Positions 5,074-56,253 of a stretch of DNA of 64,000 bases are shown piece after piece; positions within the stretch are counted from its first letter, which is position 1, and each line of letters opens with the position of its first letter. Origin of the DNA: Histomonas meleagridis (lineage: Eukaryota; Parabasalia; Tritrichomonadida; Dientamoebidae); NCBI GenBank assembly GCA_020186115.1, contig WSYJ01000186.1, positions 1,781,501 to 1,845,500 on the forward strand, given 5' to 3'. Made by a program: the position numbers and the translations under genes. Under the pieces are notes generated by a model. The model was not told where the DNA came from and made no database searches. It worked only from the letters and a program-made list of their open reading frames with translations.

Positions 5074-7674
5074 ATGATTACGAGAATTCTAATGATAATA
5101 TTCGCATCTATAATTTTACCAACACATGCTAATGCTGTTATAAATCTTAATTATACAACTGAATATTTATGGTCAGCAGACATCTTAGGCAGCGAAAAAA
5201 TAGAAGATCTTCTCATTCTAAACTATACAAATGATAGGTATGATGAAGTTCTAGAACTGCTCATAAGAGCCACGGTTTCATGGAGATATACCGTACCAAT
5301 TACTCTCGTTATGACTCGTGAAGAACATCATAAAATAACAGGCCTTCCTGTGGATGTGGAATTAAATGGAATCGGAGATTTCTGGGAACAATATTTAGCA
5401 AAAGCATATTATGATGTAAGAAAATTCGCAAGGCAAATTGACATTCCATATGCTAGCTATTTAAATGCATCTATTAATGGGTTGACAACTTATGTTCAGT
5501 GGCTCAATGAAAATCATGATCTTAATCCATATAAAGGTTACATCACAGTTAACCTTAAATCTACATCACATTTCTTGACCAGTCAAGATGAAGAACGTCG
5601 TTCTCGGCAAGAAGTTGATAAAATGTTTGCAACTGGTAATTTTACAGGATATGGTCCTGAGAATGATCTACACACAGATTACGAAAGATTAGTTGTTATT
5701 TGGTGGTGGATGCATGACAACGTTGTATATGGCCATGTTCCTCAATACGGAAATTCAGTATATAGTGCTCTATTCCAACATAGAACTGTATGTCGAGGCT
5801 ATTCTGCTCTATCAACTCTCTTCTTCAATCGCGCAGGTGTTGAAGGTTTTACTGTTCTAGGAGTTACGACAAGTGCACATGCATGGAATTGGGTACATCT
5901 TGGCGAAGATTGGTATGCATTCGACAGCACTTCAACTCTTGAAGGATTGTTCTTAAGGGGAATCAATGCAGAGTATCATAGGACTCATTATACTTATGAT
6001 GATGGTGAATTAGATTGGGGTTACCCAATTACTGATGTTGATTATGAGTATAGAAGGTATCCTTGGAATGAACCTAAAGATAAGCCAATATTATATCAAA
6101 TAGAAGCAACAGATTCTGGTAGAATTGGATCAAATCTTAAATGGACATTGAAAAAAGGGCTTCTTACTATTAAAGGAAATGGACCAATGCGTGATTTTGA
6201 AAACGAAACACTTGTTCCTTGGAAGAATTTCTTTGATGATATTAATGATATTAAGATTGAAGAAGGTGTTACGACAATTGGTGCTTATGCATTTTATAAT
6301 GTAGAGAAACTTACATACGAAAATTGCAAAGATAAATTGGGATCAATTCAATTAATTGGCAAAAAGGCATTTTCTGATTTAGATAAATTCCTTAAAGATT
6401 TTAAAGTTGAAGCATCAAGCAAAATTAATAATTTGAAGTTTTTAGGTGAAGAAAATAAAGCAAATTATGCTGAAAAAATTTCAAATGCAAACTCACAAGA
6501 AGAATTAAATGAAATTGTTGTAAAAGCACAATCTGAATCAAATAAAAATGAAGAAACACAAAAAACATTAGCAAAGAATAAAATTAATAATTTAATATTT
6601 TTAGAAGAAGAAAATAAAGTAAATTATACTGCACAAGTTTCAAATGCAAACTCACTAGAAGAATTAAATGAAATTGTTGTAAAAGCACAATCTGAATCAA
6701 ATAAAAATGAAGAAGCACAAAAAACATTAGCAAAGAATAAAATTGATGATTTTAAGTTTTTAGAAGAAGAAAATAAAGCAAATTATACTACACAAATTTC
6801 AAATGCAAACTCACAAGAAGAATTAAATGAAATTGTTGCAACTGCAGAATCTGCATCAAATAAAAATGAAGAAACACAAAAAACATTAGCAAAGAATAAA
6901 ATTAATGATTTTAAGTTTTTAGAAGAAGAAAATAAAGTAAATTATACTGCACAAGTTTCAAATGCAAACTCACAAGAAGAATTAAATGAAATTGTTGCAA
7001 CTGCAGAATCTGCATCAAATAAAAATGAAGAAACACAAAAAACATTAGCAAAGAATAAAATTAATGATTTTAAGTTTTTAGAAGAAGAAAATAAAGTAAA
7101 TTATACTGCACAAGTTTCAAATGCAAACTCACAAGAAGAATTAAATGAAATTGTTGCAACTGCAGAATCTGCATCAAATAAAAATGAAGAAACACAAAAA
7201 ACATTAGCAAAGAATAAAATTAATGATTTTAAGTTTTTAGAAGAAGAAAATAAAGTAAATTATACTGCACAAGTTTCAAATGCAAACTCACTAGAAGAAT
7301 TAAATGAAATTGTTGCAAAAGCGCAATCACAAAATGAAGAAATAAAATCAAATGAAAAAGAATCAGTAAAACAAGATATTGAAAAGTTGGAATATTTAGG
7401 CGATTTACAACAAGAATATATTGATAAATTAAACAATGCCCAAACAGAACAAGAATTTAATCAAATATTACAAGAAGCAATTGCGAAAAATGAAGAAATG
7501 AAATCAAATGGAAATGACTCCAAAGGTAACACCAATACAGCAGTGGCTATAGCTGTTCCTGTTGCTATTGTCGTAATTGCTGTTGTTGCTGTTGTTATTG
7601 TTCTTGTTGTTCGAAGAAAGAAGAACAATTACAAAACCATAAGTGAAAGTAGTGAAAAATCATCTGAAGTTTAG
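5074..7674 (+). CDS. Secreted/membrane transglutaminase-like protein with GA-type modules
   Basis: 866 residues. Residues 1-21 are a signal peptide (ILMIIFASIILPTHANA). A transglutaminase-like core follows with a complete apparent triad: Cys240 in TVCRGYS, His269 in SAHAWNW and Asp284 in AFDSTS. Residues ~350-420 resemble a BspA-type LRR unit (LLTIKGNGPM, IEEGVTTIGAYAFYN). From residue 450 come six near-identical 53-residue modules plus a divergent seventh, each with a three-helix pattern like the bacterial protein-G-related albumin-binding (GA) module. A transmembrane helix near residues 818-843, a stop-transfer RRKK and a short Ser/Glu-rich tail end the protein. It is probably displayed at the surface or in a secretory/lysosomal compartment. 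GA-like assignment is by pattern only. The modules look bacterial in style, so lateral transfer is possible. Confidence 0.8.
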   Translation: MITRILMIIFASIILPTHANAVINLNYTTEYLWSADILGSEKIEDLLILNYTNDRYDEVLELLIRATVSWRYTVPITLVMTREEHHKITGLPVDVELNGIGDFWEQYLAKAYYDVRKFARQIDIPYASYLNASINGLTTYVQWLNENHDLNPYKGYITVNLKSTSHFLTSQDEERRSRQEVDKMFATGNFTGYGPENDLHTDYERLVVIWWWMHDNVVYGHVPQYGNSVYSALFQHRTVCRGYSALSTLFFNRAGVEGFTVLGVTTSAHAWNWVHLGEDWYAFDSTSTLEGLFLRGINAEYHRTHYTYDDGELDWGYPITDVDYEYRRYPWNEPKDKPILYQIEATDSGRIGSNLKWTLKKGLLTIKGNGPMRDFENETLVPWKNFFDDINDIKIEEGVTTIGAYAFYNVEKLTYENCKDKLGSIQLIGKKAFSDLDKFLKDFKVEASSKINNLKFLGEENKANYAEKISNANSQEELNEIVVKAQSESNKNEETQKTLAKNKINNLIFLEEENKVNYTAQVSNANSLEELNEIVVKAQSESNKNEEAQKTLAKNKIDDFKFLEEENKANYTTQISNANSQEELNEIVATAESASNKNEETQKTLAKNKINDFKFLEEENKVNYTAQVSNANSQEELNEIVATAESASNKNEETQKTLAKNKINDFKFLEEENKVNYTAQVSNANSQEELNEIVATAESASNKNEETQKTLAKNKINDFKFLEEENKVNYTAQVSNANSLEELNEIVAKAQSQNEEIKSNEKESVKQDIEKLEYLGDLQQEYIDKLNNAQTEQEFNQILQEAIAKNEEMKSNGNDSKGNTNTAVAIAVPVAIVVIAVVAVVIVLVVRRKKNNYKTISESSEKSSEV
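6421..7374 (+). repeat. Six tandem 159-bp coding repeats
   Basis: Units start at 6421, 6580, 6739, 6898, 7057 and 7216, each encoding a 53-residue module beginning KIN(D/N)(F/L)KFLEEENK. Units 4 and 5 are nearly identical at DNA level, which shows recent expansion or gene conversion. The sixth unit changes after NEIVAKAQ and leads into a divergent seventh module (IEKLEYLGDLQQEYIDKLNN). Such an array should vary in copy number between strains. Confidence 0.9.
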
Positions 7675-24246: not shown

Positions 24247-24488
24247 TTCAAATAAATTTGTCAATGATAGCACTTTTTCAAAAGATGCCTTTTATACCGA
24301 TCATTTGACCCACAAAATAATTGGCAGTTTTTGAAGTGAGCACTTTTCCATAAAGAACGATAATATTAATTTTTGTGAATTTTGTTTTCAATAAAAAAAT
24401 TTACCAATCAATTTTTGTTTTTATTATGGGAAATATGTTTGGAATGAATATAAATATAAAATTATAGTTCTTGAAGTAATTTAACGAT

Positions 24489-25953
24489 TTATGTATGACC
24501 TTTTTCAGATGCCCGCATAAGTGCTGTTTCAAAAAATTTAAATAATTTCCAAATATTATTTTGAAATAATAAATTATTAAAATAAATTTTAAGTAAAATA
24601 AATAAGTATCTTCATCATTAATATCAATTCCTTTTTGTTCAAGAAGTAATTTAACAATTTCTATGTATCCTTTTGAAGATGCTCTCAAAAGTGCTGTCCA
24701 AAATATTATAAATAATTTCCAAATAGTATTTAGAAATAATAAATTATTAGAATGAATAATAAATAAAACAAACAAATATTTTTAGCATTAATTTCAATCC
24801 CTTCTTGTTCTAGAAGTAATTTAACGATTTCTGTATATCCATAATAAGATGCTCTAATAAGTGCAGTATAAAATAATTTGAATCGTTTTCAAATATCATT
24901 TTGAAATATCAAATTATGAAAATAAATTTTATCTTTAGCATTAATATCAATTCCTTCTTGTTCAAGAAGTAATTTAACGATTTCTGTATGACCTTTCTCA
25001 GACGCATAAATAAGTGCTGTATAAAATAATTTAAATAATTTCCAAATATTATTTTGAAATATTAAATTATTAAAATAAACAAAAAATAAAACAAATAAAT
25101 ACCTTTAGCATTAATATCAATAATTTTTTGTTCAAGAAACAACTTCACTGTTTCTGTGCGATTATTTTTAGATGCAACTATAAATGCTGTATTAAATCTT
25201 ATCAATGAATTCCAAATATTATTTTCATATAGAGAATTATTTATAAGAATTTTAAATAAGATTAATAAATATTTTTAGTATTAACATCAATTTCTTTTTG
25301 CTTAAGAAGCAATTTAACTACTTTTGTTTGGCCTTTACGAGATGCTTCAATAAGTGCTGTACTAAATATTTTGAATCGTTTTCAAATATCATATTGAAAT
25401 TTTCCATAATTGTAAATAATATTAAATAATTCATATAAATATTTTTATTATTGATTTCAACGCCTTCATGATTAAGAATTAATTTAACTATTTCTTTATT
25501 TCCTAACTCAGATGCAAACATAAGTGCTGACCAAAATAATATAAATAATTACCAAATATTATTTTGAAATTCGAAATTATTAAAATAAATTTTAAATGAA
25601 ACAAATAAATATTTTTAGCATTAATGTCAATTCCTTCTTTTTCGAGAAGTAATTTAACTATTTCGCTGTTACCATATTTGCATGCAAACATTAATGGTGT
25701 GTTAAATAATCAAAATAATTTTGAAAAATTATTTTGAAATAATAAGATATTAAAACAAATATATAATAAAATAAATAAATATCTTTAGCATTAATATTAA
25801 TTCCTTCTTTTTCAAGAAGCAATTTAACTGTTTCTGTGTTACCTAATCGAGATGCTAAAATAAGTGGAGTCTCATATAATTCAAATAATTTTCAAATATT
25901 ATTTTGAAATAAAGAATGATTAAAATAGATTTGAAATAAAAGAAATATATATT
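24489..25953 (-). repeat. Ankyrin cassette array A (nine cassettes)
   Basis: Downstream of DUF3447 gene A, nine units follow, mostly 169-171 bp apart (one 152). Each has an open ankyrin core, such as TPLILASRLGNTETVKLLLE, TALIEASRKGQTKVVKLLLK and TALIYASEKGHTEIVKLLLE, ending near GIDINAK(D/N). An AT-rich ~83-nt spacer then contains stops in the next frame. Cores have diverged from one another yet eight of nine stay open. The last core is stopped early, at ASEKGHT followed by TAA at 24489-24491. The period is not a multiple of three, so the cores are joined only if part of each spacer is removed from the RNA or skipped. One spacer (25191-25273) contains no GT. Confidence 0.85.
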
Positions 25954-26733
25954 TACAATATTAATATCAATTCCTTTTAGTTCCAAAGTATATTTTATAA
26001 GTTCTATATTTTTTGATTCTATTGAACATATCAAAATATTTTCTGGAATTTTAATATTTTGAAGAAAATATTTCGTAATATAGAAATTTCCTAATTTTGC
26101 TGCTTCATTTATCGTTTCACCAAAAATTTTCACACCTTTCTTCATTAAAAATGAAAGAATCTCATAATTATGATACAAAATACATTTTATTTTTAAATCT
26201 CCTTCATTATAATATGATATAATTTCATTTTCATAAAGATAATGAAAAATATCATTTCGATGGAATTGAATTGCTGCTTCAAATGCCCAATAAAATGTTG
26301 AATGATTTTGTTCACATAAATGAATGATTTCTTCATCTCCACCTGCAACTGCATATTTACCTGTATTTTTTACTTTCGCACCATTCATAAGTAAATATTT
26401 AAAACATTTAACTGATGAAAAAAATGCTGCATAATCAATTAATGAAACATTTTCTTCATTAATAAAATCACATCTTTCATAAAGTGATGGTTCAATTTTT
26501 TGGTTAAAATCAAAATTTGGTTGTGATGATATTTCTTGAAGTTTTTCTATGTCATCATTTCGAATTATCTTTGCAATTTCATTTGGATTATGTCCTTCTT
26601 GAATTAATTTCTTATGAAGTTCCCAATCATTTGCTGAAAGTTCTTCATAATAGTCCAGAACTTTATCCATAAATTTATGGTATTTTAATTTTTCATTTTC
26701 TGTATATGATCTCATGTATGCAAAATGATTCAT
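25855..26733 (-). CDS. DUF3447-type ankyrin protein A, second part
   Basis: Open frame of 292 residues; about the last 33 run into the first spacer. It contains LSANDWELHKKLIQEGHNP, IIRNDDIEKLQEISSQPNFD, SLYERCDF and VSLIDYAAFFSSVKCFKYLL, the signature of the trichomonad DUF3447 ankyrin family. Ankyrin-like repeats follow, to GIDINI at about 25957. It overlaps the first part (26693-27118) in another frame: FCIHEIIYRK in one frame versus HFAYMRSYTEN in the other. Compared with protein B (YFIHYKTEENM) a one-base frameshift is likely near 26715. Either the gene is newly broken or the assembly has an indel. These proteins are large multicopy families in trichomonads with unknown function. Confidence 0.7.
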   Translation of the reverse strand: MNHFAYMRSYTENEKLKYHKFMDKVLDYYEELSANDWELHKKLIQEGHNPNEIAKIIRNDDIEKLQEISSQPNFDFNQKIEPSLYERCDFINEENVSLIDYAAFFSSVKCFKYLLMNGAKVKNTGKYAVAGGDEEIIHLCEQNHSTFYWAFEAAIQFHRNDIFHYLYENEIISYYNEGDLKIKCILYHNYEILSFLMKKGVKIFGETINEAAKLGNFYITKYFLQNIKIPENILICSIESKNIELIKYTLELKGIDINIVNIYFFYFKSILIILYFKIIFENYLNYMRLHLF

Positions 26734-27118
26734 TTAGATTTTGAATTATTTTTTCTTCAATAAAATTATTTTCAAGCATATATTCAAGAAGATAATTTGA
26801 CTCTTGTTTTTCTGTATTTATAAGTAAATGAACAAAATCATCAATTATTTTTGTTATGATTTGATTTTCATTCTCAAAAATTTTCTTAATAAAATTCAAA
26901 AATACACTGGGAGTTTGTATTTTCGTATAAAAAAATATGTACAACATTTGAGTTATAATACGATTAAATGAAAATGGATGATCATTATCAAATATGTTAA
27001 TAATTAATTCTATTGTTTTATCAATATTTTCACTGTTCAAGCTGAATATTATATTGTTAATTAACAATAGTTTTTCCATTTCATCTTGATTTTGATTTCT
27101 ATTTTGTTTGCTTTCCAT
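26693..27118 (-). CDS. DUF3447-type ankyrin protein A, N-terminal part
   Basis: Starts at the ATG 27116-27118 (MESKQNRNQNQDEMEKLLL); 141 residues to a stop. The helical pattern (SENIDKTIELIINIFDNDHP, then FVHLLINTEKQESNYLLEYM) parallels the first ~150 residues of protein B at 31383 (FEISIEQTMELFDLNFPL, then FSHYLIQKDSHESNYLIEKM). It is therefore the N-terminus of the same gene as the overlapping 25855-26733 frame, separated by a one-base shift. Confidence 0.7.
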   Translation of the reverse strand: MESKQNRNQNQDEMEKLLLINNIIFSLNSENIDKTIELIINIFDNDHPFSFNRIITQMLYIFFYTKIQTPSVFLNFIKKIFENENQIITKIIDDFVHLLINTEKQESNYLLEYMLENNFIEEKIIQNLNESFCIHEIIYRK

Positions 27119-28148
27119 GGACAAAAATAAAAATTATTTTGAATAGTTTTTATAATCAAAAAAGCCAAACTTCGGCATTTTTTTTCAAATACAGAGGCGT
27201 AAGAATCCAATTTCTTTGTCCTGAAATTGCAAGACTAATATAAAGAAATGATGGTGGTATTGGTGGATGAATTAACCCATTGAACAATACTTGCATTTAT
27301 TCAATGTTTTCAAAATATTTGTCGCAATATATAAGGTGCCTGACTTCACTTTCTCCACTTTTGAGTTAACTCATTGAATCATTTGTATGAGATAATTCAA
27401 AAAGTGGAGTATACAACAAGTAAAAGAAAATTTTATATGAGATATATCAAAAAGTGGGCTACGTACAGAATTTTTTATTTACTTCACTTTTTGATATAAA
27501 TTTGGCCACAAAAGGTTGATGGTATAAACATATCAAAAAGTTGATAATATAAATAACATTAAAAGTCGCTGGGTAAATTAATCAAAAAGTTACTGAAGAC
27601 GTTTATTTTTTACACAGGTTATTCCTCATTGGAGATTTTCAACAAACAAACAAAATATTTCATATTCCGTAACTAATATATCCATGAATTTATAAAAATT
27701 TCCATAAAAATCAAATAGCCAACTTATAATATTATAAATCAACAGAATATAATGAATTTGAAAATAAAAATTATTTTGAGTTGAAATTAAAAAAAAAAAA
27801 ACATAGTTATATTAATGAAATAGTTTCTTTTAACCAAGAATGATTTTAACCATTTTGGTTATTTTTCAACTTATAAGTTCAGGGTTCACAAGATATACCA
27901 ATTAGATTAATAGAATAAAAAGATGATATACACATATGACCCAGATACCCCTGTTGTAAATGCAATTCAAAAAGTTCGTATAATATTTTTCTATTAACTA
28001 ATAGAATTTATTGTATGAGTTCAATCAAAAAATGAAGTCAGCAGCTTTTTCTCTTACCACACATGAAAATCACTTGTGCCCTTCAATATTATGTGTACTT
28101 ATGCCATTTTTTTTGTAAGATCAGAAATATTTTTGTTTTTTTTAAATA
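27119..28148. other. Intergenic region with a short decayed coding remnant
   Basis: About 1 kb between the two ankyrin genes. On the reverse strand near 27180-27300 a short stretch reads NGLIHPPIPPSFLYISLAIS then GQRNWILTP; I do not recognise it and it has no start. The rest is AT-rich, with repeated AAAAAGT/ACTTTTT words (27395-27600). Confidence 0.35.
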
Positions 28149-30057
28149 TTACTTATTTCGTGTAGATGTTCTAGAATCTTTGGATTTAGGTTTTTTATTG
28201 ACACCTTTTTTTCGAAGTAATTTAACTATTTCTGTATAACCACCTGAAGATGCGTATGAAAGTGCATTAGCAAATATTATAAATAATTTCCTAATAATAT
28301 TTCGAAATATCAGGTTAAACTAACAAAATTTATATAAAATAATTAAATATTTTTAGCATTGACATCAATTCCTTTTTGTTCAAGAAGTAATTTCACTATT
28401 TCTACATAACCGCTTTCAGATGCATATGCACAAATAAGAGCTGTATTAAATAATTTTGTTAAATTCCAAATATTATTTTGAAATATCAAATTATCATAGT
28501 AAATAATAAATAAAATTAAAAAACATCTTTAGCATTAATGTCAATACCTTCTTGCTCAAGAAGTAATTTAACTATTTCTGTATGACCCATTGAAGCTGCC
28601 CAAATAAGCGCTGTTTCAAATAATCTGAGTAGTTTCCAAATATTATTTTTAATTTTCAAATTAATAATATAAATATTAAATAAAATTAAAAAATATCTTT
28701 AGCATTAATATCAATTCCTTCTTGTTCAAGAAGTAATTTAACTGTTTCTGTTTTACCATTTGAAGATGCTATAATAAGCGCTGTTCTAAATAATTCAAAT
28801 AATTTCCAAATATTATTTTGATATATCAAATTATTAAAACAAATTTTAAATAAAACAAATAAATATCTTTAGCATTAATATCAATTCCTTCTTGTTCAAG
28901 AAGTAATTTAACTATTTCTGTTTTACCATTTGAAGATGCTATAATAAGCGCTGTTTTAAATTGTTTGAATATTTTTCAAATATTATTTTGAAATATCAAA
29001 TTATTAAAATCAATATCAAATAAAACAAATAAATACTTTTAGCATTAATATCAATTCCTTCTTGTTCAAGAAGTAATTTAACTATTTCTGTTTTACCATT
29101 TAAAGATGCCCAAAAAAGTGCTGTATTAAATAATTTAAATAATTTCCAAATATTATTTTGAAATATCAAATTATTAAAATCAATATCAAATAAAACAAAT
29201 AAATACTTTTAGCATTAATATCAATTCCTTCTTGTTCAAGAAGTAATTTAACTGTTTCTGTTTTACCATTTGAAGATGCTATAATAAGCGCTGTTCTAAA
29301 TAATTCAAATAATTTCCAAATATTATTTTGAAATCCGAAATTATTAAAATAAATTTTAAATAAAACAAATAAATATTTTTATCATTAATATCAATTCCTT
29401 CTTGTTCGAGAAGTAATTTAACGATTTCTGTATGACCATTTAAAGATGCATACATAAGTGCTGTATTAAATAATTCAAATAATTTCCAAATATTATTTTG
29501 ATATATCAAATTATTAAAACAAATTTTAAATAAAACAAATAAATATCTTTAGCATTAATATCAATTCCTTCTTGTTCAAGAAGTAATTTAACGATTTCTG
29601 TATGACCTTTTTCAGATGCCCGCAAGAGTGCTGTATCAAATAACTTAAGTTGTTTTCAAATATTATTTTGAAATAATAAATTATTAAAATATATTTTAAA
29701 TAAAACAAATAAATATTTTTAGCATTAATATCAATTCCTTCTTGTTCAAGAAGTAATTTAACGATTTCTGTATGACCTTTTTCAGATCCCCACATAAGTG
29801 CTGTATCAAATATTTTAAATAATTTCCAAATATTATTTTGAAATAATAAATTATTAAAATATATTTTAAATAAAACAAATAAATATTTTTAGCATTAATA
29901 TCAATTCCTTCTTGTTCAAGAAGTAATTTAACGATTTCTGTATGACCTTTTTCAGATCCCCACATAAGTGCTGTATCAAATATTTTAAATAATTTCCAAA
30001 TATTATTTTGAAATATTAAATTATTAAAATAAATATTAAATAAAACAAATAAATATT
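28149..30057 (-). repeat. Ankyrin cassette array B (ten cassettes plus terminal cassette)
   Basis: Eleven units continue DUF3447 gene B. Ten have the open 87-nt core TAL(M/I/F)xASxxGHTEIVKLLLE then QEGIDINAK, followed by an 83-nt spacer; the period is exactly 170 bp between most units. One unit (28350-28445) is 176 bp because of a 6-nt, in-frame insertion inside the core (LICAYASESG). The last unit begins NALSYASSGGYTEIVKLL and departs into a distinct basic tail, KKGVNKKPKSKDSRTSTRNK, with TAA at 28149-28151. Three spacers (before array coordinates ~29860, ~29210 and ~29040 only in part) carry GTATTT near the 5' end; most have ATATTT. The spacer 28615-28697 contains no GT at all. Confidence 0.85.
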
Positions 30058-31383
30058 TTTAGCATTAATATCAATTCCTTCTTCTCCTAAAATATATTTA
30101 ACAAGCTCAATATTTCTTGATTCTGTTGCAAATACTAAGATGTTTCTTGGAATTTGATTATTTTGGAGAAAATGTTTAATAAGATATATATTACCACTTT
30201 TTGCTATTTCATTTAATAAGAATTCATTAATTTCAAGACCATTTTCAAGTAAAAATTTAAGAATTTCATAATTTCCGCTTTTAATACAAAAGAATCCTAA
30301 ATTATTAATTTTATTACCTTCCATTCCTATATCTGATGAAGATTGATTAGAATTTCCATTCCCAAGATTTTGTGAATTATGTTGAGCGTTTTCATCCAAT
30401 TTTTCTATTTTGTTTTCATAAATATATTTAAAGATATCATTTTGATGAAATATAATTGCTGTTTCATATGCATTTCTAAATATTGAATGATTCTGTTCAC
30501 ATAAATGAATGATTTCTATATTTCCACCTGCAATTGCATATTTGCCTGTATTATTTACAATTACACCATTTGCTAATAAATATTTAAAACATTTAATTGA
30601 TCCAAAAAATGCTGCAAAATCAATTAATGAAAGATCATGATTAACAAACCCATATCTTTCATAAAGTGATGATTCAATTATTTGATTAAAATTAAAATCT
30701 GGCAGTGATGACATTTCTTGAAGTTTTTCTATGTCATCATTTCGAATTACTTTTGAAATTTTATTCGGATTCACTCCTTCTGTAACATATTTTTTATGAA
30801 GTTCCCAATCATTCTTTGAAAGTTCTTCATAATTTTCGTCTCTTTGATACATAAAAAAAGAATTAGAAAAAGATTTTTGCATATTTTCTTCTGTTTTATA
30901 ATGTATAAAATAATATGAATTGATGTGATTGGTAATATTTTTATTTAACATGTTTCGCTCAATCATTTTCTCAATTAAATAATTTGATTCATGTGAATCC
31001 TTTTGAATCAAATAGTGACTAAAAGTATCAATAATTTTTGAACTATTTTTATTAATATCTGCTTCTTTTGATTGAATCATTTCTAAAAAATTTAAATATA
31101 AATCACCCACTTCTTTTCTTGATAAAAAACTATAATAAATCAAATTACAAATTATTAAATTGTATGATAATGGGAAATTTAAATCAAATAATTCCATTGT
31201 TTGCTCAATACTGATTTCAAAATTATCTTTAGTCAAACCAAAAATTAATTGTTCGAGCTTAGATAGCAACTCCATGAAGGTGGCTTTAAAGCTGGTCGAC
31301 ACTTTCCTAATCAATCTTTCAATTATTGACTGTTTTACAATCATGGCGCCAGACCTCAAAGACCACTTTTGATCGGCAGTCAT
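30016..31383 (-). CDS. DUF3447-type ankyrin protein B, main exon
   Basis: 455 open residues from the ATG at 31381-31383; authentic ankyrin sequence ends near 30058 (GEEGIDINAK) and the last ~14 residues are spacer. It has a helical N-terminal region, then YEELSKNDWELHKKYVTEGV, KVIRNDDIEKLQEMSSLPDF and SLIDFAAFFGSIKCFKYLL, the DUF3447 signature. Ankyrin units with LICNLIYY, IEIIHLCEQNHS and SRNIELVKYIL follow. An Asn/Ser-rich insert lies near residues 330-350. It is immediately followed by cassette array B. The leader reads ACTTTTTGGAAATAAA just before the ATG. Such proteins are probably interaction scaffolds or effectors; the function is unknown. Confidence 0.8.
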   Translation of the reverse strand: MTADQKWSLRSGAMIVKQSIIERLIRKVSTSFKATFMELLSKLEQLIFGLTKDNFEISIEQTMELFDLNFPLSYNLIICNLIYYSFLSRKEVGDLYLNFLEMIQSKEADINKNSSKIIDTFSHYLIQKDSHESNYLIEKMIERNMLNKNITNHINSYYFIHYKTEENMQKSFSNSFFMYQRDENYEELSKNDWELHKKYVTEGVNPNKISKVIRNDDIEKLQEMSSLPDFNFNQIIESSLYERYGFVNHDLSLIDFAAFFGSIKCFKYLLANGVIVNNTGKYAIAGGNIEIIHLCEQNHSIFRNAYETAIIFHQNDIFKYIYENKIEKLDENAQHNSQNLGNGNSNQSSSDIGMEGNKINNLGFFCIKSGNYEILKFLLENGLEINEFLLNEIAKSGNIYLIKHFLQNNQIPRNILVFATESRNIELVKYILGEEGIDINAKNIYLFYLIFILII

Positions 31384-32473: not shown

Positions 32474-34459
32474 TTACAACTTCAGTGGATAATACTGTGA
32501 CACGTCCCAATTCTCTATCAAGAACTGCAAGAATCCGATTGCTATATCCGAGTATTCCTTTACCTGCGCTGGCTCATTAAAGTCTACTTGAGGCTGCACG
32601 ATATTTGGCGAGAACACAATCGCCAAATTCTTTGGCCCCATTTTTGTTTCCTCTTCAGCCTTCGCAAGTCTCTGTAGGAATCCGATTAAGTATCCGAGCA
32701 AGTTCAAGTGCGCAGGCGGCAAATGCTGCACCACGAAGTCGAGATAATTCCCGTCTTCATGCGCGTTCTTTAAGTAAGGCAATGCCTCCACTGGCACTGT
32801 CGGGTTAGACAAGTCTCTAAACCATAACTTAAACAATGATAACAAATCAAAGATTTCAGAATTAGGAATCGGATCATTTCCTTTGTCGATGTCTTGCACC
32901 ATCTGTTGGACTAATTTCATATTGCCTGGCAATCGAAAGATACCAGTGATACGTTCCGCGCCTTTGGATAGAATCGTTTCCGCCATACGATGAACGAGTA
33001 TTGGAATCGGAAAATTCGGATATTCGCTTCGTTGAAACCAAAGATGCTCATAGATAGACGCCGAAAATGTACTGTGTTCGCGATTAATTTGCTTGGGGAT
33101 CTTAACAGAGTAATTGATTTCGAGATTCGTCTTAGGTTTGCCGATCGCGCATCTGGCAGAAAATCGAATGTATGTAAATTGCGCAAGATTGGATATCCAC
33201 TTGTTATCCGACATGGAGGAGCGGGCAAGATGAGACTTGATCCATACTTCGCTGTTTCGTGACGATGGGAAAATTGTGGCGATGATCAAAAAAAGTTCCC
33301 AAGTCTTCACCTCCCAGTCGGGATCTGGGTTCTGACGGGTCTGCTTGATCAGTTGGAAGTAAACTTCGTCGTATAGGCTGGGATTGTTGGTCAATATTTG
33401 GACAAGTTGGTCGGCACAAACTGAGGCGCCTTTGACGAAAATTACGCCGGTGTAGTTAAGGATGAGCTTGAAACACTTCACTGCGTTCTTTTCGTCGTTG
33501 GGATTGGTTAATTTGATGAGTGAAAATTCAAGAGGCTCTTTGGAGAATTGAGTTATTTGTTCAAGCGAAACAAGTTTGCGATTAAAAACTTTGCCTGTGC
33601 GATGCTCCCTGAAGTATTGTTTAGCATATTCTTCAACTTGGAATTTATGGATATTTTCTTGGATATCAGATGGAAGATATGGAGCATTGGCATTGGGATA
33701 AAAGGATGCATCCCTCTTGGGGAATAATGATGATGATACTTTGTTTTCATCAAAATTATTGACTTCATCCGGTATATCAAGAATGTTAGTATTTTGATGA
33801 GCACGAGATCGCTTGTGCTTTCCTGAGTGTTTCTTGCGTTCTACGACAATACCATCATTGACAAATTTGAGTGGATCTTGATACATATGACTTTTCCGAA
33901 TTCCACGGTGTTTTGATGTCTCGTGCTGTCGGACTGTACGACTTCGCTTTAGATTTCGTACGTCTGGATTGATATCAGGAAGAGTTTCTTCGGATTGTTT
34001 GGGTGTTGAATTATCAAGTCCAAGATTTTCAAAATCAGAAGTTTTGTTTCGTACAAGTGCATTATCATTCTTTACCTGGTTTTCATTTGAGAATTTTATA
34101 TTTTTATCATTTCCATCTGTTGTATCTTTTGTTTGTGATTCTGATGTTTTTTCAGTTTGATCGGATTCTGTTGTTTGTGTGGATGTTCCTGGTGTGGATG
34201 TATCTTGTAAACTTGGATCCTCATTATTTTCTTTTGCCGCTTTTAATGCCGACTCCCGCTGTTGTAAAACAAATTCATTATAAGATTCCAATAACATTGC
34301 ATATTCAGGATTTTGAGTTGCATCAAATTCGATAGGTGTCAATGTTGTTGGATCTAGGACAATTCCATCTGCTGGAAATTGATAAGTAGTTACATTTGTT
34401 GATGGATCGAAATAATATGGATCTATATCATTATAATATCTGTAATAAACATGTATCAT
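32474..34459 (-). CDS. ARHGAP39-like WW-MyTH4-RhoGAP protein
   Basis: 661 residues. The N-terminus is WW-like (YYNDIDPYYFDPSTNVTTYQ). A disordered Thr/Ser/Lys-rich linker runs to about residue 260. Residues ~300-450 are a MyTH4 domain (LYDEVYFQLIKQTRQNPDPD, WELFLIIATIFPSSRNSEVW). The rest is a RhoGAP domain with the arginine finger in ITGIFRLPG (near residue 508), LLSLFKLWFRDLSNPTVP and MGPKNLAIVFSPNIV. The WW, MyTH4, RhoGAP order is that of ARHGAP39/Vilse. It should stimulate GTP hydrolysis by Rho/Rac GTPases and couple them to the cytoskeleton. The codon use is less AT-rich than in neighbours at 32500-33500. Confidence 0.9.
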   Translation of the reverse strand: MIHVYYRYYNDIDPYYFDPSTNVTTYQFPADGIVLDPTTLTPIEFDATQNPEYAMLLESYNEFVLQQRESALKAAKENNEDPSLQDTSTPGTSTQTTESDQTEKTSESQTKDTTDGNDKNIKFSNENQVKNDNALVRNKTSDFENLGLDNSTPKQSEETLPDINPDVRNLKRSRTVRQHETSKHRGIRKSHMYQDPLKFVNDGIVVERKKHSGKHKRSRAHQNTNILDIPDEVNNFDENKVSSSLFPKRDASFYPNANAPYLPSDIQENIHKFQVEEYAKQYFREHRTGKVFNRKLVSLEQITQFSKEPLEFSLIKLTNPNDEKNAVKCFKLILNYTGVIFVKGASVCADQLVQILTNNPSLYDEVYFQLIKQTRQNPDPDWEVKTWELFLIIATIFPSSRNSEVWIKSHLARSSMSDNKWISNLAQFTYIRFSARCAIGKPKTNLEINYSVKIPKQINREHSTFSASIYEHLWFQRSEYPNFPIPILVHRMAETILSKGAERITGIFRLPGNMKLVQQMVQDIDKGNDPIPNSEIFDLLSLFKLWFRDLSNPTVPVEALPYLKNAHEDGNYLDFVVQHLPPAHLNLLGYLIGFLQRLAKAEEETKMGPKNLAIVFSPNIVQPQVDFNEPAQVKEYSDIAIGFLQFLIENWDVSQYYPLKL

Positions 34460-37208: not shown

Positions 37209-37667
37209 TTATAAATCAATAATATTAATATTGTTATCTTCTTTAAAATCTTTCGAAAATGGATCTTCTTCGATTTGTAATTTATCATTACATATTTCTA
37301 GATTATTTAGGGTTTCGATTTCTTCTTGACTTATAGCGTTTTCACTACTTTGTTTATGTTTTCTTTTATTATGATATAATGTTATAAAAATTACTATAAT
37401 AATGATGACAACAATAACCACAACTATGCAAGCAATTATTATAAGAGTCATATTATTATCTTTTCCATTATGTTCAATTGTATTAATATATGAATATGTA
37501 TAAAACTCATACAATGAATAATATCGAACAATACTATATTCATAATATATAAATTCTGTGTAAGAAATCATAAATGATGAATGATATAGCGAATATATTA
37601 ATGTATTTGATATAAACGAATTATTTATTACAACAGTTTCAGTAATTTTTAAATATGTTAATAACAT
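37209..37667 (-). CDS. Membrane anchor and tail of the BspA-like protein (shifted frame)
   Basis: The open frame begins LLTYLKITETVVINNSFISN, which reads as the continuation of a leucine-rich repeat. A Tyr-rich stretch follows, then a strong transmembrane segment (LIIIACIVVVIVVIIIIVIF) and a cytoplasmic tail (NKRKHKQSSENAISQEEIET) ending in acidic residues. It overlaps the end of 37658-38869 by 10 bp in another frame. It lacks a signal peptide and an LRR domain of its own, so it is best seen as the 3' part of one gene split by a small indel. Confidence 0.6.
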   Translation of the reverse strand: MLLTYLKITETVVINNSFISNTLIYSLYHSSFMISYTEFIYYEYSIVRYYSLYEFYTYSYINTIEHNGKDNNMTLIIIACIVVVIVVIIIIVIFITLYHNKRKHKQSSENAISQEEIETLNNLEICNDKLQIEEDPFSKDFKEDNNINIIDL

Positions 37668-38869
37668 TTTTCTATTGTTTCAACATTTAGAAGATCAATT
37701 GATGTTAATGATGAACAAGAATAAAATCCATAAGATCCAATTGATTTAATGTTTTGTCCAACATTAATTTTCATTAGTCCTGCTGAAGAAAATGCATTTT
37801 TGTCAATTGTTGTAACTTTTGAAGGTAATGAAATTTCTTTAAGTGCACTACAACCACTAAATGAATAAGCTCCAATTCCAGTTATTAATTCATTTAATGT
37901 AACTGAAGATAACATTACACAAATTTGGAACAAGCCCAATGGAATGTAGCTTATATTTCCAACATTAGCCCTTGTTAAATGTGAACAACATTCAAATACA
38001 GAATCGCCAAGTGTATCAACAGATAATGGAATATCAAATTCAGTTATTGCTGTATATGCCAGTGCAGAATCGCCAATTGTTGTTAAATTACTTCCATTAA
38101 TTGTAAATTTTGTAAGTTTATCACAATGATAAAATGCTTCACTACCAATTGTTAGGGTATTTGAAGGAAGTACAACTGATGTTATCCCACTATATTCGAA
38201 TGCACCACGAGAAATTCTTCTAATTCCTGATCTGAATGTGATATTTAATAATGATGAACAATGCTCAAAAGCATAAGAACTGATCTTATTAACTGAGTTT
38301 GGAATATTAATAGATATCAAATTTATACAACATGAGAAACAATATTCAGAAATTTCAGTTAAAATGTTAATATCTTCTTCAAAAGTAAAATTAGTCAAAT
38401 TCATGCAATATCTAAAAACCTGGTAACCCATATACACAAGATTTTTTGGAATAGTTACTGAAGTTAATGAAATACAATGTTCAAATGCAATAGATGAAAT
38501 TTCGAGAATATTAACAGGTAATGTAATAGATTGAAGAGATTCACAATAATAAAATACACCACTCCCAATGATTCTTAATCCTTCACCAAATGTAATATTT
38601 TTTAATTTTGTGCATTCGCGAAAAGCGTCTTCTTCAATTGTTGAAACAGAGTCAGATAAAGTAACAGTCTCAATTAGTTCTGCAACGATGAATTGACATC
38701 TCGGAATATAGGTAACATTATCACCTTTGATTTCCAGTTCAATTGTCTGATTTTTAAGATTCAAAATATCATCAAAATCAAGTTGTTTATTAAGAGTAAG
38801 CTTTCCTGCATCAAAGGTCCATTCTTGAGTTGTCTTTCGAAATAATATGAATAAAAAAAGGGAAAACAT
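37658..38869 (-). CDS. BspA-like leucine-rich repeat surface protein (frameshifted)
   Basis: 403 residues. The start MFSLFLFILF is a signal peptide or anchor. Then come about a dozen BspA/TpLRR-type repeats (LRR_5), each near 23 residues, such as SVSTIEEDAFRECTKLKNIT, GIRRISRGAFEYSGITSVVL and SIGSYGFYSCSSLTSIDL. The frame stops after ETIEKCY, in the middle of a repeat, and the transmembrane tail continues in the neighbouring frame. BspA-like proteins form a large family in trichomonads and resemble bacterial adhesins; a surface role is likely. A real frameshift or an assembly indel near 37665 would explain the split. Confidence 0.8.
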   Translation of the reverse strand: MFSLFLFILFRKTTQEWTFDAGKLTLNKQLDFDDILNLKNQTIELEIKGDNVTYIPRCQFIVAELIETVTLSDSVSTIEEDAFRECTKLKNITFGEGLRIIGSGVFYYCESLQSITLPVNILEISSIAFEHCISLTSVTIPKNLVYMGYQVFRYCMNLTNFTFEEDINILTEISEYCFSCCINLISINIPNSVNKISSYAFEHCSSLLNITFRSGIRRISRGAFEYSGITSVVLPSNTLTIGSEAFYHCDKLTKFTINGSNLTTIGDSALAYTAITEFDIPLSVDTLGDSVFECCSHLTRANVGNISYIPLGLFQICVMLSSVTLNELITGIGAYSFSGCSALKEISLPSKVTTIDKNAFSSAGLMKINVGQNIKSIGSYGFYSCSSLTSIDLLNVETIEKCY

Positions 38870-51739: not shown

Positions 51740-52030
51740 TTGAATCAATTCCTTTGTGTCCATGAAGTAATTTAACTATATCTATATGACCATTTGAAGA
51801 TGAAATCATAAGTGCTGTTTCAAATAATTCAAATAGTTCCTAAATATGATTTAGGAATTCTAAAATTAAATAAAAATTTCCATAGTTAATATCAATTCCT
51901 TTTTGTTCAAGAAGAAATTTCATTAATTCGAAATTTCCTGACTCTGTTGCACAAGTTAAAGTTTTCTTTTGAAGTTTACAATCATTCATAATATATTTCA
52001 CTCAAAAAATATTACCAATTTTCCTAAATT
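51740..52030 (-). pseudogene. 3' remnant of a DUF3447 ankyrin gene (D)
   Basis: On the reverse strand: KYIMNDCKLQKKTLTCATES then GNFELMKFLLEQKGIDINY, a spacer with a stop, then TALMISSSNGHIDIVKLLHG and HKGIDSNI with a stop. This repeats the core-spacer-core pattern of arrays A and B, but with a shorter spacer and only one cassette. The upstream domain is lost. Confidence 0.65.
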
Positions 52031-53319: not shown

Positions 53320-53470
53320 TTTATTGTTTCTTGGTGAAGCATATGTAAATACTGTTTGAAATCATTTAAATAATTACCAAATAGAATTTTAAAATGAAAT
53401 ATTAAATTGATGAACATCTTTATCATTAATGTCAATTCTCTCATGTTCATGAAGTAATTTCATCAATAAA
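53320..53470 (-). pseudogene. Ankyrin cassette remnant (E)
   Basis: On the reverse strand: MKLLHEHERIDINDKD, a spacer containing TTTGGTAATTATTTAAATGA, then TVFTYASPRNNKKYYN. It shows the same core-spacer-core layout as arrays A and B, reduced to parts of two cassettes. Confidence 0.55.
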
Positions 53471-54163: not shown

Positions 54164-54405
54164 AGGATTATTAATATAATATTATTACTATTATATATAA
54201 TATTACTATTATATATAATATTACTATTATATATAATATTACTATTATATATATTATTACTATTATATATATTATTACTATTATATATATTATTACTATT
54301 ATATATATTATTACTATTATATATATTATTACTATTATATATATTATTACTATTATATATATTATTACTATTATATATATTATTACTATTATATATATTA
54401 TTACT
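54164..54405. repeat. 18-bp minisatellite, about 13 units
   Basis: Unit ATTATTACTATTATATAT, with the first few units carrying AATATT in place of ATTATT. Both reverse-strand frames stay open by chance of composition (NSNNIY or IIVIIY repeats), so apparent proteins here are artefacts. Length polymorphism is expected. Confidence 0.9.
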
Positions 54406-55378: not shown

Positions 55379-55588
55379 ATGATTTCGCTAAAGCATATGC
55401 CTATTGATGATACTATAAACACAAGAGATAAAAATTTGAATAATTTTCCAACCTGCTTGAAATTCCTAATTGAGATTGAGAAAACTATATTTGATTTAAC
55501 CGAAGAAAACTTTCAGCCGTCCATTAAAAAAATATTGGAATTATTCGATTCAAATTATCCCTTTACGTTTCTTCTAACTGCTATATGA
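55379..55588 (+). pseudogene. DUF3447 N-terminal fragment (F), cut by an opposite-strand cassette
   Basis: ATG at 55379: MISLKHMPIDDTINTRDKNL, then FLIEIEKTIFDLTEENFQPS and KKILELFDSNYPFTFLL. This matches the first ~70 residues of protein B (LEQLIFGLTKDNF..SIEQTMELFDLNFPLSYNL). At about 55570 the sequence switches to ankyrin cassettes on the other strand, and the frame stops at 55588. A rearrangement joined the two. Confidence 0.65.
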
Positions 55589-55860
55589 AGTGCTGTTTCA
55601 AATTATTAAAACATATTACAGATTATTAAAATGAATATTTTTTGCATTAACATCAATTCCTTCTTTATCTAAAAGTAATTTTACTATTTCTATATTATTA
55701 TTTCTAATTGCTATATGAAGTGCTGTTTCAAATTATTAAAACATATTACAGATTATTAAAATGAATATTTTTTGCATTAACATCAATTCCTTCTTTATCT
55801 AAAAGTAATTTTACTATTTCTATATTATTATTTCTAACTGCTATATGAAGTGCTGTTTCA
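55571..55860 (-). repeat. 130-bp ankyrin cassettes (two-plus units)
   Basis: On the reverse strand the core TALHIAIRNNNIEIVKLLLD then KEGIDVNAK repeats with an exact 130-bp period (ATGAAG marks at 55585, 55715 and 55845). The core is 87 nt and the spacer 43 nt, again out of frame from unit to unit. Removing 31 nt would give the same 33-residue period as in arrays A and B. Confidence 0.75.
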
Positions 55861-55970
55861 AATTATTCAAACATATTAAAAATTATTAAAACATATATAA
55901 AATTATTAAAACATATTCCAAATTATTAAAACATATTCCAATTTATTAAAACATATATAAAATTATTAAA
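55861..55970. repeat. 20-bp minisatellite derived from a cassette spacer
   Basis: About six units of AATTATTAAAACATATNNNA in exact 20-bp register. The same words occur once in each 130-bp cassette spacer, so the satellite grew from a spacer. Confidence 0.75.
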
Positions 55971-56253
55971 ATAACCTAGAATAAATATAGCGCTATATCA
56001 GTATCATAAAGAAATCTTTTGAAAAATGTTGAGTCGGAACTACTCTTTTTCTCTTAATGAACTTTGGATTAATGATTCGAAGACATGGATATTCCTTTGC
56101 ATGTGTATTTATAGTTTCATTTTTTTTTATTTTTTATTTATAATATGTATCAACAACACAATGAGTAATGCTATAATTATAACTAAAATAGAATAAATTC
56201 ATTTATTATTATTAAAGTGCATAGAAAATTCTCTTTTTTTTAAGTTTAATATT
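55971..56253. other. Short intergenic region
   Basis: No gene seen between the satellite and the stop codon of the giant Furry-like gene. Confidence 0.4.

What the first reader, a model, noticed from the sequence alone, without database searches (positions are those of the whole stretch)
24489..31383. Ankyrin genes continued by out-of-frame 170-bp cassette arrays
Two DUF3447 ankyrin genes run straight into arrays of about 9 and 11 cassettes. Every cassette has an 87-nt open ankyrin core, then an 83-nt spacer, so the 170-bp period shifts frame each time. Removing 71 nt (169-171 bp units give 70-72) would give the canonical 33-residue ankyrin repeat throughout. Cores have diverged yet stay open, while spacers accumulate stops. 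If expressed, each protein would need about ten precise removals of nearly identical spacers, giving large scope for isoforms that skip whole cassettes. Alternatives: a silent cassette reservoir for recombination, translational bypassing, or a recently dead expansion.
Basis: partly seen in the sequence, partly recalled or inferred. Interest (0 to 1): 0.9.

Follow-up and report, generated by a model that had tools for sequence, protein, structure and literature searches.

The report
Ankyrin genes chopped by 17-base inserts
In a poultry parasite, a large family of ankyrin genes is interrupted thousands of times by inserts exactly 17 bases long, often with just one codon between neighbours, so the cell must have a way of skipping or removing them that fits no known kind of intron.

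Summary
The arrays are real, but the spacer is not one 71-nt insert. In the standard 80-nt spacer, four 17-nt AT-rich elements alternate with four single codons. Those codons plus the next one spell the ankyrin hairpin (D/N-x-x-G-x) that the cores lack, giving a 34-residue repeat.

Evidence: 400 cassettes in 49 segments of the same genome (43.3 Mb; Histomonas meleagridis by size, GC and a protein match). 394 of 400 cores are intact; 317 of 346 spacers are exact multiples of 20 (3+17) nt; 0 of 1,373 spacer triplets is a stop (35 expected among 336 variants, P about 1e-17). Five spacers lack exactly one element with codons kept. Between genes elements fall to 41-53% identity while the 20-nt step holds. 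Several arrays end in capping repeats with stop codons. Two element sequences alone occur 2,213 and 2,028 times exactly, against 4 and 0 for reversed controls.

The elements lack GT-AG ends, the T. vaginalis intron motif, RNA structure, matched bypass codons and consistent TA borders. Best reading: a new length-defined intervening sequence removed from RNA; translational skipping is not excluded. No transcript was available. Array B looks intact; array A carries a frame change and a nonsense codon.

The parts
30058..31383 (-). Gene B, N-terminal open frame: DUF3447 plus degenerate ankyrin repeats, running into the first cassette core (30144-30058)
   Evidence: Pfam DUF3447 9.5e-11, Ank_4 1.6e-12; 68 other near-full-length matches in the genome among 93 scored of 8,423 candidates
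29975..30057 (-). Gene B spacer 1: AAT[17]AAT[17]AAT[17]GGA[17] then GAT (hairpin N-N-N-G-D)
   Evidence: parsed
28272..30144 (-). Array B: 11 cores and 11 spacers of 80 nt (44 elements of 17 nt); hairpin codons NNNGD, NKIGD, NKIED, DKDGN, NKRGR, SDDGN, SDDEK, DKDGR, DNEGE, DIDGN, NKDGA
   Evidence: nine spacers parsed by script; spacers 10 (core 11 carries a 6-nt in-frame insertion) and 11 parsed by eye from the printed letters
28149..28271 (-). Gene B C-terminal cap repeat with basic tail and stop codon
   Evidence: open 40-residue reading ANAL..EIVKLLRKKG..TRNK then stop (letters)
25954..27124 (-). Gene A N-terminal region (DUF3447), with a frame change near 26.69-26.73 kb, running into the first core of array A
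   Evidence: two overlapping ORFs in different frames; DUF3447 2.8e-10 on 25855-26733
24528..26040 (-). Array A: 9 cores and 9 spacers, 8 of 80 nt and one of 63 nt
24868..24933 (-). Array A 63-nt spacer plus x codon: first 17-nt element absent, codons GAT AAA adjacent, other three elements present
24441..24530 (-). Last repeat of array A with an in-frame TAA; decayed end
55641..55971 (-). Third, group-2 fragment: two cores with a 40-nt spacer (two 17-nt elements), preceded by a run of 20-nt units
   Evidence: TRF periods 130 and 20; sequence; hits

Best explanation
The spacers are runs of 17-nt intervening elements placed exactly between codons, with single-codon exons between neighbours. SHOWN by sequence: the unit is 3+17 nt; the triplets behave as codons of the ankyrin hairpin D-x-x-G-x; element length is nearly fixed while element sequence is loose; single elements can be absent with codons kept; array genes begin with a DUF3447 domain and several end with a cap and stop. 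INFERRED: the elements are removed from the RNA, one by one or in runs, so that a long ankyrin protein of 34-residue repeats is made. Removal is set mainly by length (17 nt) plus weak end signals (usually starts A, ends ATTT), and is either non-spliceosomal or done by a strongly altered splicing route. Group-2 genes add or lose whole 3+17 units, which changes hairpin length without breaking frame. Diversity at ankyrin surface positions suggests the family makes variable binding surfaces.
For: 394 of 400 near-full cores lack frameshifts and stops. 317 of 346 spacers are multiples of 20; allowing codon gains and losses, 10 of 346 fail the 17k+3m rule, four of which span a core the profile missed, leaving 6. 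0 stops in 1,373 unit triplets; 35.2 expected among 336 variant events, P 9e-18 assuming independence. Codon 1 is D/N in 149 of 168 and codon 4 is G in 142 of 168; in 36 hairpins of spacerless ankyrin genes of the same genome these are 27 and 27. Exactly one element absent in five 63-nt spacers at four loci, codons kept. In 18 of 20 genes chosen by their N-terminus, 45 of 47 measured spacers obey the rule; in the 33 standard ones elements fall to 41-53% identity. 12 of 12 isolated copies of one element lie beside ankyrin cores, read by eye. Genome counts 2,213 vs 4 and 2,028 vs 0 controls. In-frame read-through of the 61 spacers divisible by 3 meets a stop in 56.
Against: No transcript, cDNA or peptide across a junction was seen. 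No removal machinery is known that would act on these ends, and a run of 3-nt exons is hard for a spliceosome. Of 51 proteins found, 3 carry the species name, and P0007 of these ends two residues past the first NAK position. Element substitutions look near-neutral in group 1 (0.08-0.11 vs 0.042 at third positions of conserved residues) and like third positions in group 2 (0.02-0.05 vs 0.040, only 10 distinct cassettes), so sequence gives little sign of a recognition motif. Cassettes are partly homogenised (294 distinct elements among 1,505 units), which weakens independence in the counts.
Confidence: 0.6

Rival explanations
1. The 17-nt elements are spliceosomal micro-introns with changed splice sites, removed in sequence by an ordinary spliceosome, as the 15-16 nt introns of Stentor are.
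For: Fixed tiny length as in Stentor (15 or 16 nt; PMC9505925 passages). The genome has Prp8 in one 2333-residue frame and a U6 candidate with the ACAGAGA box. The group-2 element begins ATATGTTTTAAT, which recalls GTATGT with the first base changed.
Against: 0 of 1,505 units have GT..AG, and 1 in total at shifts of up to 3 bases. T. vaginalis intron motif ACTAACACACAG: 3 hits vs 2 reversed control; the one GTATGT..CTAACACAG hit lies inside an open frame. U1 not found at E up to 1.
Confidence: 0.14
2. The ribosome skips each 17-nt element (translational bypassing); the mRNA keeps them.
For: Fixed length with loose sequence; stops inside elements do not matter; codons on both sides kept.
Against: Bypassing as I know it (recalled: T4 gene 60, yeast mitochondrial byps) re-pairs the tRNA with a matching triplet: 19 of 1,505 units have the codon before the element equal to its last triplet. 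32 different triplets precede elements. No RNA structure in the spacers tested.
Confidence: 0.12
3. Silent cassette store or recently dead expansion; the protein ends in the first spacer.
For: Several predicted relatives end two residues past the first NAK (P0001, P0002, P0005, P0006, P0008, P0017). Array A has a frame change and a nonsense codon. Relic cassettes exist (L065), and several arrays end in decayed sequence.
Against: Triplet diversity without stops inside already interrupted hairpins needs translation after insertion. Caps with stops follow a number of arrays. Frame-breaking lengths are about as rare in spacers (6 of 342) as in cores (4 of 400).
Confidence: 0.1
4. Spacers are translated in frame as a linker between ankyrin repeats.
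For: Three-element spacers are 63 nt and some are open: 0 of 3 found in L068 have a stop; P0013 from another record reads through what looks like one into a cap.
Against: 56 of 61 spacers divisible by 3 contain an in-frame stop, as do 2 of 3 found in L067 and 6 of 8 in L069. 285 of 346 spacers are not divisible by 3.
Confidence: 0.02
5. Programmed DNA elimination removes the elements in an expressed form of the genome, as with ciliate IES.
For: AT-rich short inserts between codons.
Against: TA at both borders in 212 of 1,505 units; parabasalids are not known to have a second nucleus (recalled).
Confidence: 0.02

Closest known systems
Stentor coeruleus 15-16 nt introns
   Same: Tiny, AU-rich, nearly fixed length
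   Different: Most Stentor introns start GU and end AG (PMC9505925 passages); these do not, lie in runs with 3-nt exons, and were seen in one gene family only
Trichomonas vaginalis / T. stableri type B introns (23-28 nt)
   Same: Parabasalid, short, T-rich
   Different: The 63 T. vaginalis introns are GT/AG with a fused branch-site/3' motif, shortest 23 nt, no multiple introns per transcript in T. vaginalis (PMC12316389 passages); the motif is at background level here
Nonconventional introns of euglenids and diplonemids
   Same: No GT-AG, variable borders, unknown removal route
   Different: Those are longer (medians 37 and 91 nt in two diplonemids; PMC12621601 passages) and pair their ends; no structure found in these spacers
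Translational bypassing (T4 gene 60, yeast mitochondrial byps; recalled)
   Same: Short non-coding gaps between codons
   Different: No matching take-off and landing codons, no structure, thousands of gaps, up to 19 in a row
Ciliate internal eliminated sequences (recalled)
   Same: Short AT-rich inserts in coding sequence
   Different: No consistent TA borders; 17 nt is below lengths I know of

Membership tests
U2-type spliceosomal introns | GT at 5' end and AG at 3' end | tested here: not met
   0 of 1,505 units; 27 start GT, 0 end AG; shifts of up to 3 bases give 1 in total
U2-type spliceosomal introns | Parabasalid branch-site/3' motif | tested here: not met
   ACTAACACACAG 3 genome hits vs 2 for the reversed control; not in the printed element frequencies
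U2-type spliceosomal introns | Organism has a spliceosome | tested here: met
   Prp8 domain 5.5e-206; U6 43.7 bits, just under the cut-off of 44; U1 not found
U2-type spliceosomal introns | Absent from mature mRNA | not testable with these tools
   no transcript data at hand
Trichomonad type B introns | Length 23-28 nt | tested here: not met
   17 nt in the units parsed
Euglenid/diplonemid nonconventional introns | Base-pairing that brings the intron ends together | tested here: not met
   RNAalifold on 31 distinct diverged 80-nt spacers: no pair; mean z +0.29 for 25 of these folded singly. Single 17-mers were not folded apart.
Translational bypassing | Take-off codon equals landing triplet | tested here: not met
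   19 of 1,505
Ciliate IES | TA at both borders | tested here: not met
   212 of 1,505
Ankyrin repeat / DUF3447 proteins | Pfam DUF3447 and Ank above cut-off | tested here: met
   both N-terminal ORFs
Ankyrin repeat / DUF3447 proteins | D-x-x-G-x-T hairpin between repeats | tested here: met
   only when the 17-nt elements are passed over: D/N 149/168, G 142/168

The most novel reading that the evidence does not exclude
A new class of intervening sequence: length-defined, 17 nt, no splice-site dinucleotides, inserted between codons in runs of one to nineteen with single-codon exons, numbering many thousands in one protist genome and so far seen only in ankyrin hairpins, removed by an undescribed RNA route or skipped by the ribosome. 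Inserting or losing 3+17 units would let hairpin length change without ever breaking frame.
Probability: 0.6. Interest if true: 0.97.

Novelty: categorically new. Interest (0 to 1): 0.93.

Why it matters
No gene structure I know of has codons carried one at a time between fixed-length inserts. If the inserts are removed from RNA, some of the shortest and densest intervening sequences on record would lie outside the GT-AG system, in an organism that keeps a spliceosome, and would ask for a new removal activity. If they are skipped in translation, bypassing would exist in a nuclear genome thousands of times. Either way a large diversified gene family of a poultry parasite is probably missing from current annotation, since the annotated member seen here (P0007) stops at the first spacer. 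The question can be settled by reading long cDNAs.

Tried and rejected
Single 68-71 nt intron: no GT near the start and AG near the end that keeps frame, and it would throw away the D-x-x-G codons. Read-through linker: stops in 56 of 61 in-frame spacers. Programmed -1 shift once per 20-nt unit: the third group-1 element carries a conserved TAA in that frame (letters). RNA structure in spacers: none. Shifted element borders: a shift of one base to the left would make every codon end in T and predict TAA/TGA triplets, which are absent. T. vaginalis-like introns: not found. DNA of sister species: IMG/VR protein scan found no relative and two DNA patterns found 0; one bacterial MAG contig (L107, CALUSQ010000040.1) carries a relative but is cut before any array. 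The stop test by offset is not clean alone: offsets 3, 13 and 17 also show no stops because those bases hardly vary; one search is the proper test. Rfam on the array region: one match at E 0.76, far below its cut-off. Broken LRR gene at 37.2-38.9 kb: no 17-nt element seen at the break, by eye. Papers: searches showed no description of this structure in their listings; papers were seen as listings or passages only, none read whole.

Rows dropped: of 473 core hits, 73 partial ones were left out of core counts; spacers of 400 nt or more were left out; spacers not divisible by 20 were left out of triplet and element counts. Of the 20 sampled genes, L071 and L089 (group 2) were read by eye only; in the other 18, four spacers beside cores that the script missed were not among the 47: one in L075 is 81 nt and so fails, two in L087 are 80 nt, one was not measured. 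Core starts there were set partly by hand.
Full report
WHAT WAS GIVEN. Two DUF3447 ankyrin genes run into arrays of 170-bp cassettes whose spacers shift the frame. The window is C120:1781501-1845500 of a 43.28-Mb, 121-contig genome. Size, GC and contig length fit Histomonas meleagridis (43.41 Mb, 28.66% GC, largest contig 3,384,422; PMC8529796, passages): contig C120 is 3,384,422 bases, and two proteins named Histomonas meleagridis are listed with a contig of that length. That paper reports 573 introns in 11,119 genes, at most one per gene.

OBSERVATION. Both arrays are present on the minus strand. Array B has 11 cores and 11 spacers of 80 nt and then a cap with a stop codon at 28271-28149. 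Array A has 9 spacers, 8 of 80 nt and one of 63 nt; its N-terminal region has a frame change and its last repeat a TAA, so A is probably decaying.

THE FAMILY. A cassette search of the same genome gave 256 matches and a second query, from a 130-bp array at 55.6 kb, gave 322; both are lower bounds. Sixty loci of about 3.3 kb were kept, and with the window they merge into 49 segments, 226,774 bp. A DNA profile of the core found 473 hits, 400 of them near full length. Of the 400, 394 have neither frameshift nor stop; 100 are exactly one codon shorter than the profile.

THE 20-NT QUANTUM. Of 346 spacers under 400 nt, 317 are exact multiples of 20: 20, 40, 60, 80, 100 and on to 380. Remainders on division by 3 are 2 in 239, 0 in 61 and 1 in 46, so in-frame read-through is not what is kept. 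Each 20-mer is a variable triplet followed by a conserved 17-mer. In group 1 the usual spacer holds four different 17-mers; in group 2 it holds one to nineteen, the inner ones closely similar.

THE TRIPLETS ARE CODONS. In 168 group-1 spacers of 80 nt the four triplets read D/N (149), then mostly K/N/D/E, then mostly D/Y/N, then G (142), before a variable codon and T-A-L. This is the ankyrin hairpin that the cores lack. In 36 hairpins of three spacerless ankyrin genes of the same genome, position 1 is D/N in 27 and position 4 is G in 27. None of 1,373 triplets is a stop. With the substitution spectrum of the elements, 336 variant triplets (each counted once per segment and position) should hold 35.2 stops; none is seen, P 9e-18 if independent. 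The 80-nt group-1 cassettes share the same four elements, so I infer that they descend from one interrupted founder and that the codon diversity arose after the interruption. A dead or silent array does not explain that.

LENGTH IS KEPT, SEQUENCE IS LOOSE. Five 63-nt spacers at four loci lack exactly the first element, with both codons kept; others gain a whole codon between elements, and one 66-nt spacer has lost most of an element but stays in frame. Counting codons and elements, 10 of 346 spacers fail the rule length = 17k+3m with k and m within two of each other; four of these span a core the profile missed, leaving six; 26% of lengths from 20 to 120 would pass by chance. To avoid choosing loci by cassette, I took the ends of 20 genes picked by their N-terminal match. 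All show spacers after the first core (by eye). In the 18 that were parsed, 45 of 47 measured spacers obey the rule, and the 33 of 80 nt, cut at fixed 20-nt steps, hold no stop in 132 triplets although their elements fall to 41-53% identity between genes. Four spacers beside missed cores were not in that count; one, in L075, is 81 nt and fails, and the next core of L075 has a stop, while near copies L080 and L084 have 80 nt and no stop there. In group 1, element diversity (0.08-0.11) is above third positions of conserved residues (0.042), and triplets are far more diverse (0.30); in 10 group-2 cassettes the values are 0.02-0.05, 0.040 and 0.42.

ENDS AND ABUNDANCE. Of 1,505 units, 1,417 elements end TTT, 1,233 start AT and 206 AA; distinct elements are 91% A+T. 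One group-2 17-mer occurs 2,213 times exactly in the genome (reversed control 4), and one group-1 element plus G occurs 2,028 times (control 0). Since each of the latter normally sits among three or four elements, the total is probably above 10,000 (inference). Twelve of 12 isolated copies examined, picked from the 100 places listed, lie beside ankyrin cores; other gene families were not surveyed.

GENE ENDS. A number of arrays are followed by capping repeats, some with QIAQQKGYTEIVNLL plus a tail and stop; others end in decayed sequence or beyond the fetched piece. A minimal gene (L064) is N-terminal domain, one 40-nt spacer, cap.

OTHER ORGANISMS. Relatives at 44-54% identity from unnamed records end two residues past the first NAK (P0001, P0002, P0005, P0006, P0008, P0017). 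P0003 reads on for a length that fits an 80-nt spacer plus codon and then an out-of-frame T-A-L; P0013 reads through what looks like a 63-nt spacer into a cap; P0004 has one hairpin with no insert (interpretation of protein ends, no array DNA seen). So the structure is probably older than the species.

MECHANISM. Spliceosomal removal is not favoured: no GT-AG, no T. vaginalis intron motif above background (the only GTATGT..CTAACACAG hit is coding), although Prp8 and a U6 with the standard ACAGAGA box exist. Bypassing lacks matched codons (19 of 1,505). Nonconventional introns pair their ends; these spacers show no structure. Read-through meets stops in 56 of 61 in-frame spacers. What remains is a length-defined removal from RNA, or a skip in translation of a kind not described. 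I commit to RNA removal at 0.6; that the triplets are or very recently were translated as one product I put near 0.9.

FUNCTION. Residue diversity in 198 distinct group-1 cores is highest at the x codon and positions 5, 8, 9 and 11, which are exposed positions in ankyrin repeats (established knowledge), pointing to varied binding surfaces. What they bind is unknown.

LIMITS. No transcript or peptide was available. Cassettes are partly homogenised, so counts are not independent. Some 81-nt and 41-nt spacers may be long-read errors. H. meleagridis introns of ordinary genes were not characterised.

Noticed in passing
window 55572-55971: Third, group-2 cassette fragment: two 87-nt cores with a 40-nt spacer (two 17-nt elements), followed on the + strand by a run of 20-nt units of the same kind.
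   Followed up: yes
window 51744-51960 and 53420-53462: Further core relics, with odd spacing, on the minus strand.
   Followed up: partly
window 37209-38869: BspA-type leucine-rich repeat gene whose frame changes near 37.66 kb, before a transmembrane-like stretch and tail; the break does not look like a 17-nt element.
   Followed up: partly
window 5074-7674: Transglutaminase-like protein with 5.7 in-frame copies of a 159-bp repeat matching the GA module (4.4e-21).
   Followed up: no
window 32474-34459: MyTH4-RhoGAP gene in a stretch of 38% GC, above the rest of the window (20-33%).
   Followed up: no
window 54167-54405: 18-bp unit repeated 13 times at 97% match, overlapping a short ORF.
   Followed up: no
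P0023 (Tritrichomonas foetus TRFO_07820): Annotated protein has about 14 unexpected hydrophobic residues in an ankyrin hairpin and ends oddly at another; unannotated inserts may exist there too.
   Followed up: no
L107 (CALUSQ010000040.1): Contig binned as a Gastranaerophilales bacterium encodes a relative of this parabasalid family, so it is probably contamination.
   Followed up: partly
genome G000: The T. vaginalis intron 3' motif is at background level, Prp8 and U6 are present, U1 was not found: ordinary introns of this species may look different.
   Followed up: partly
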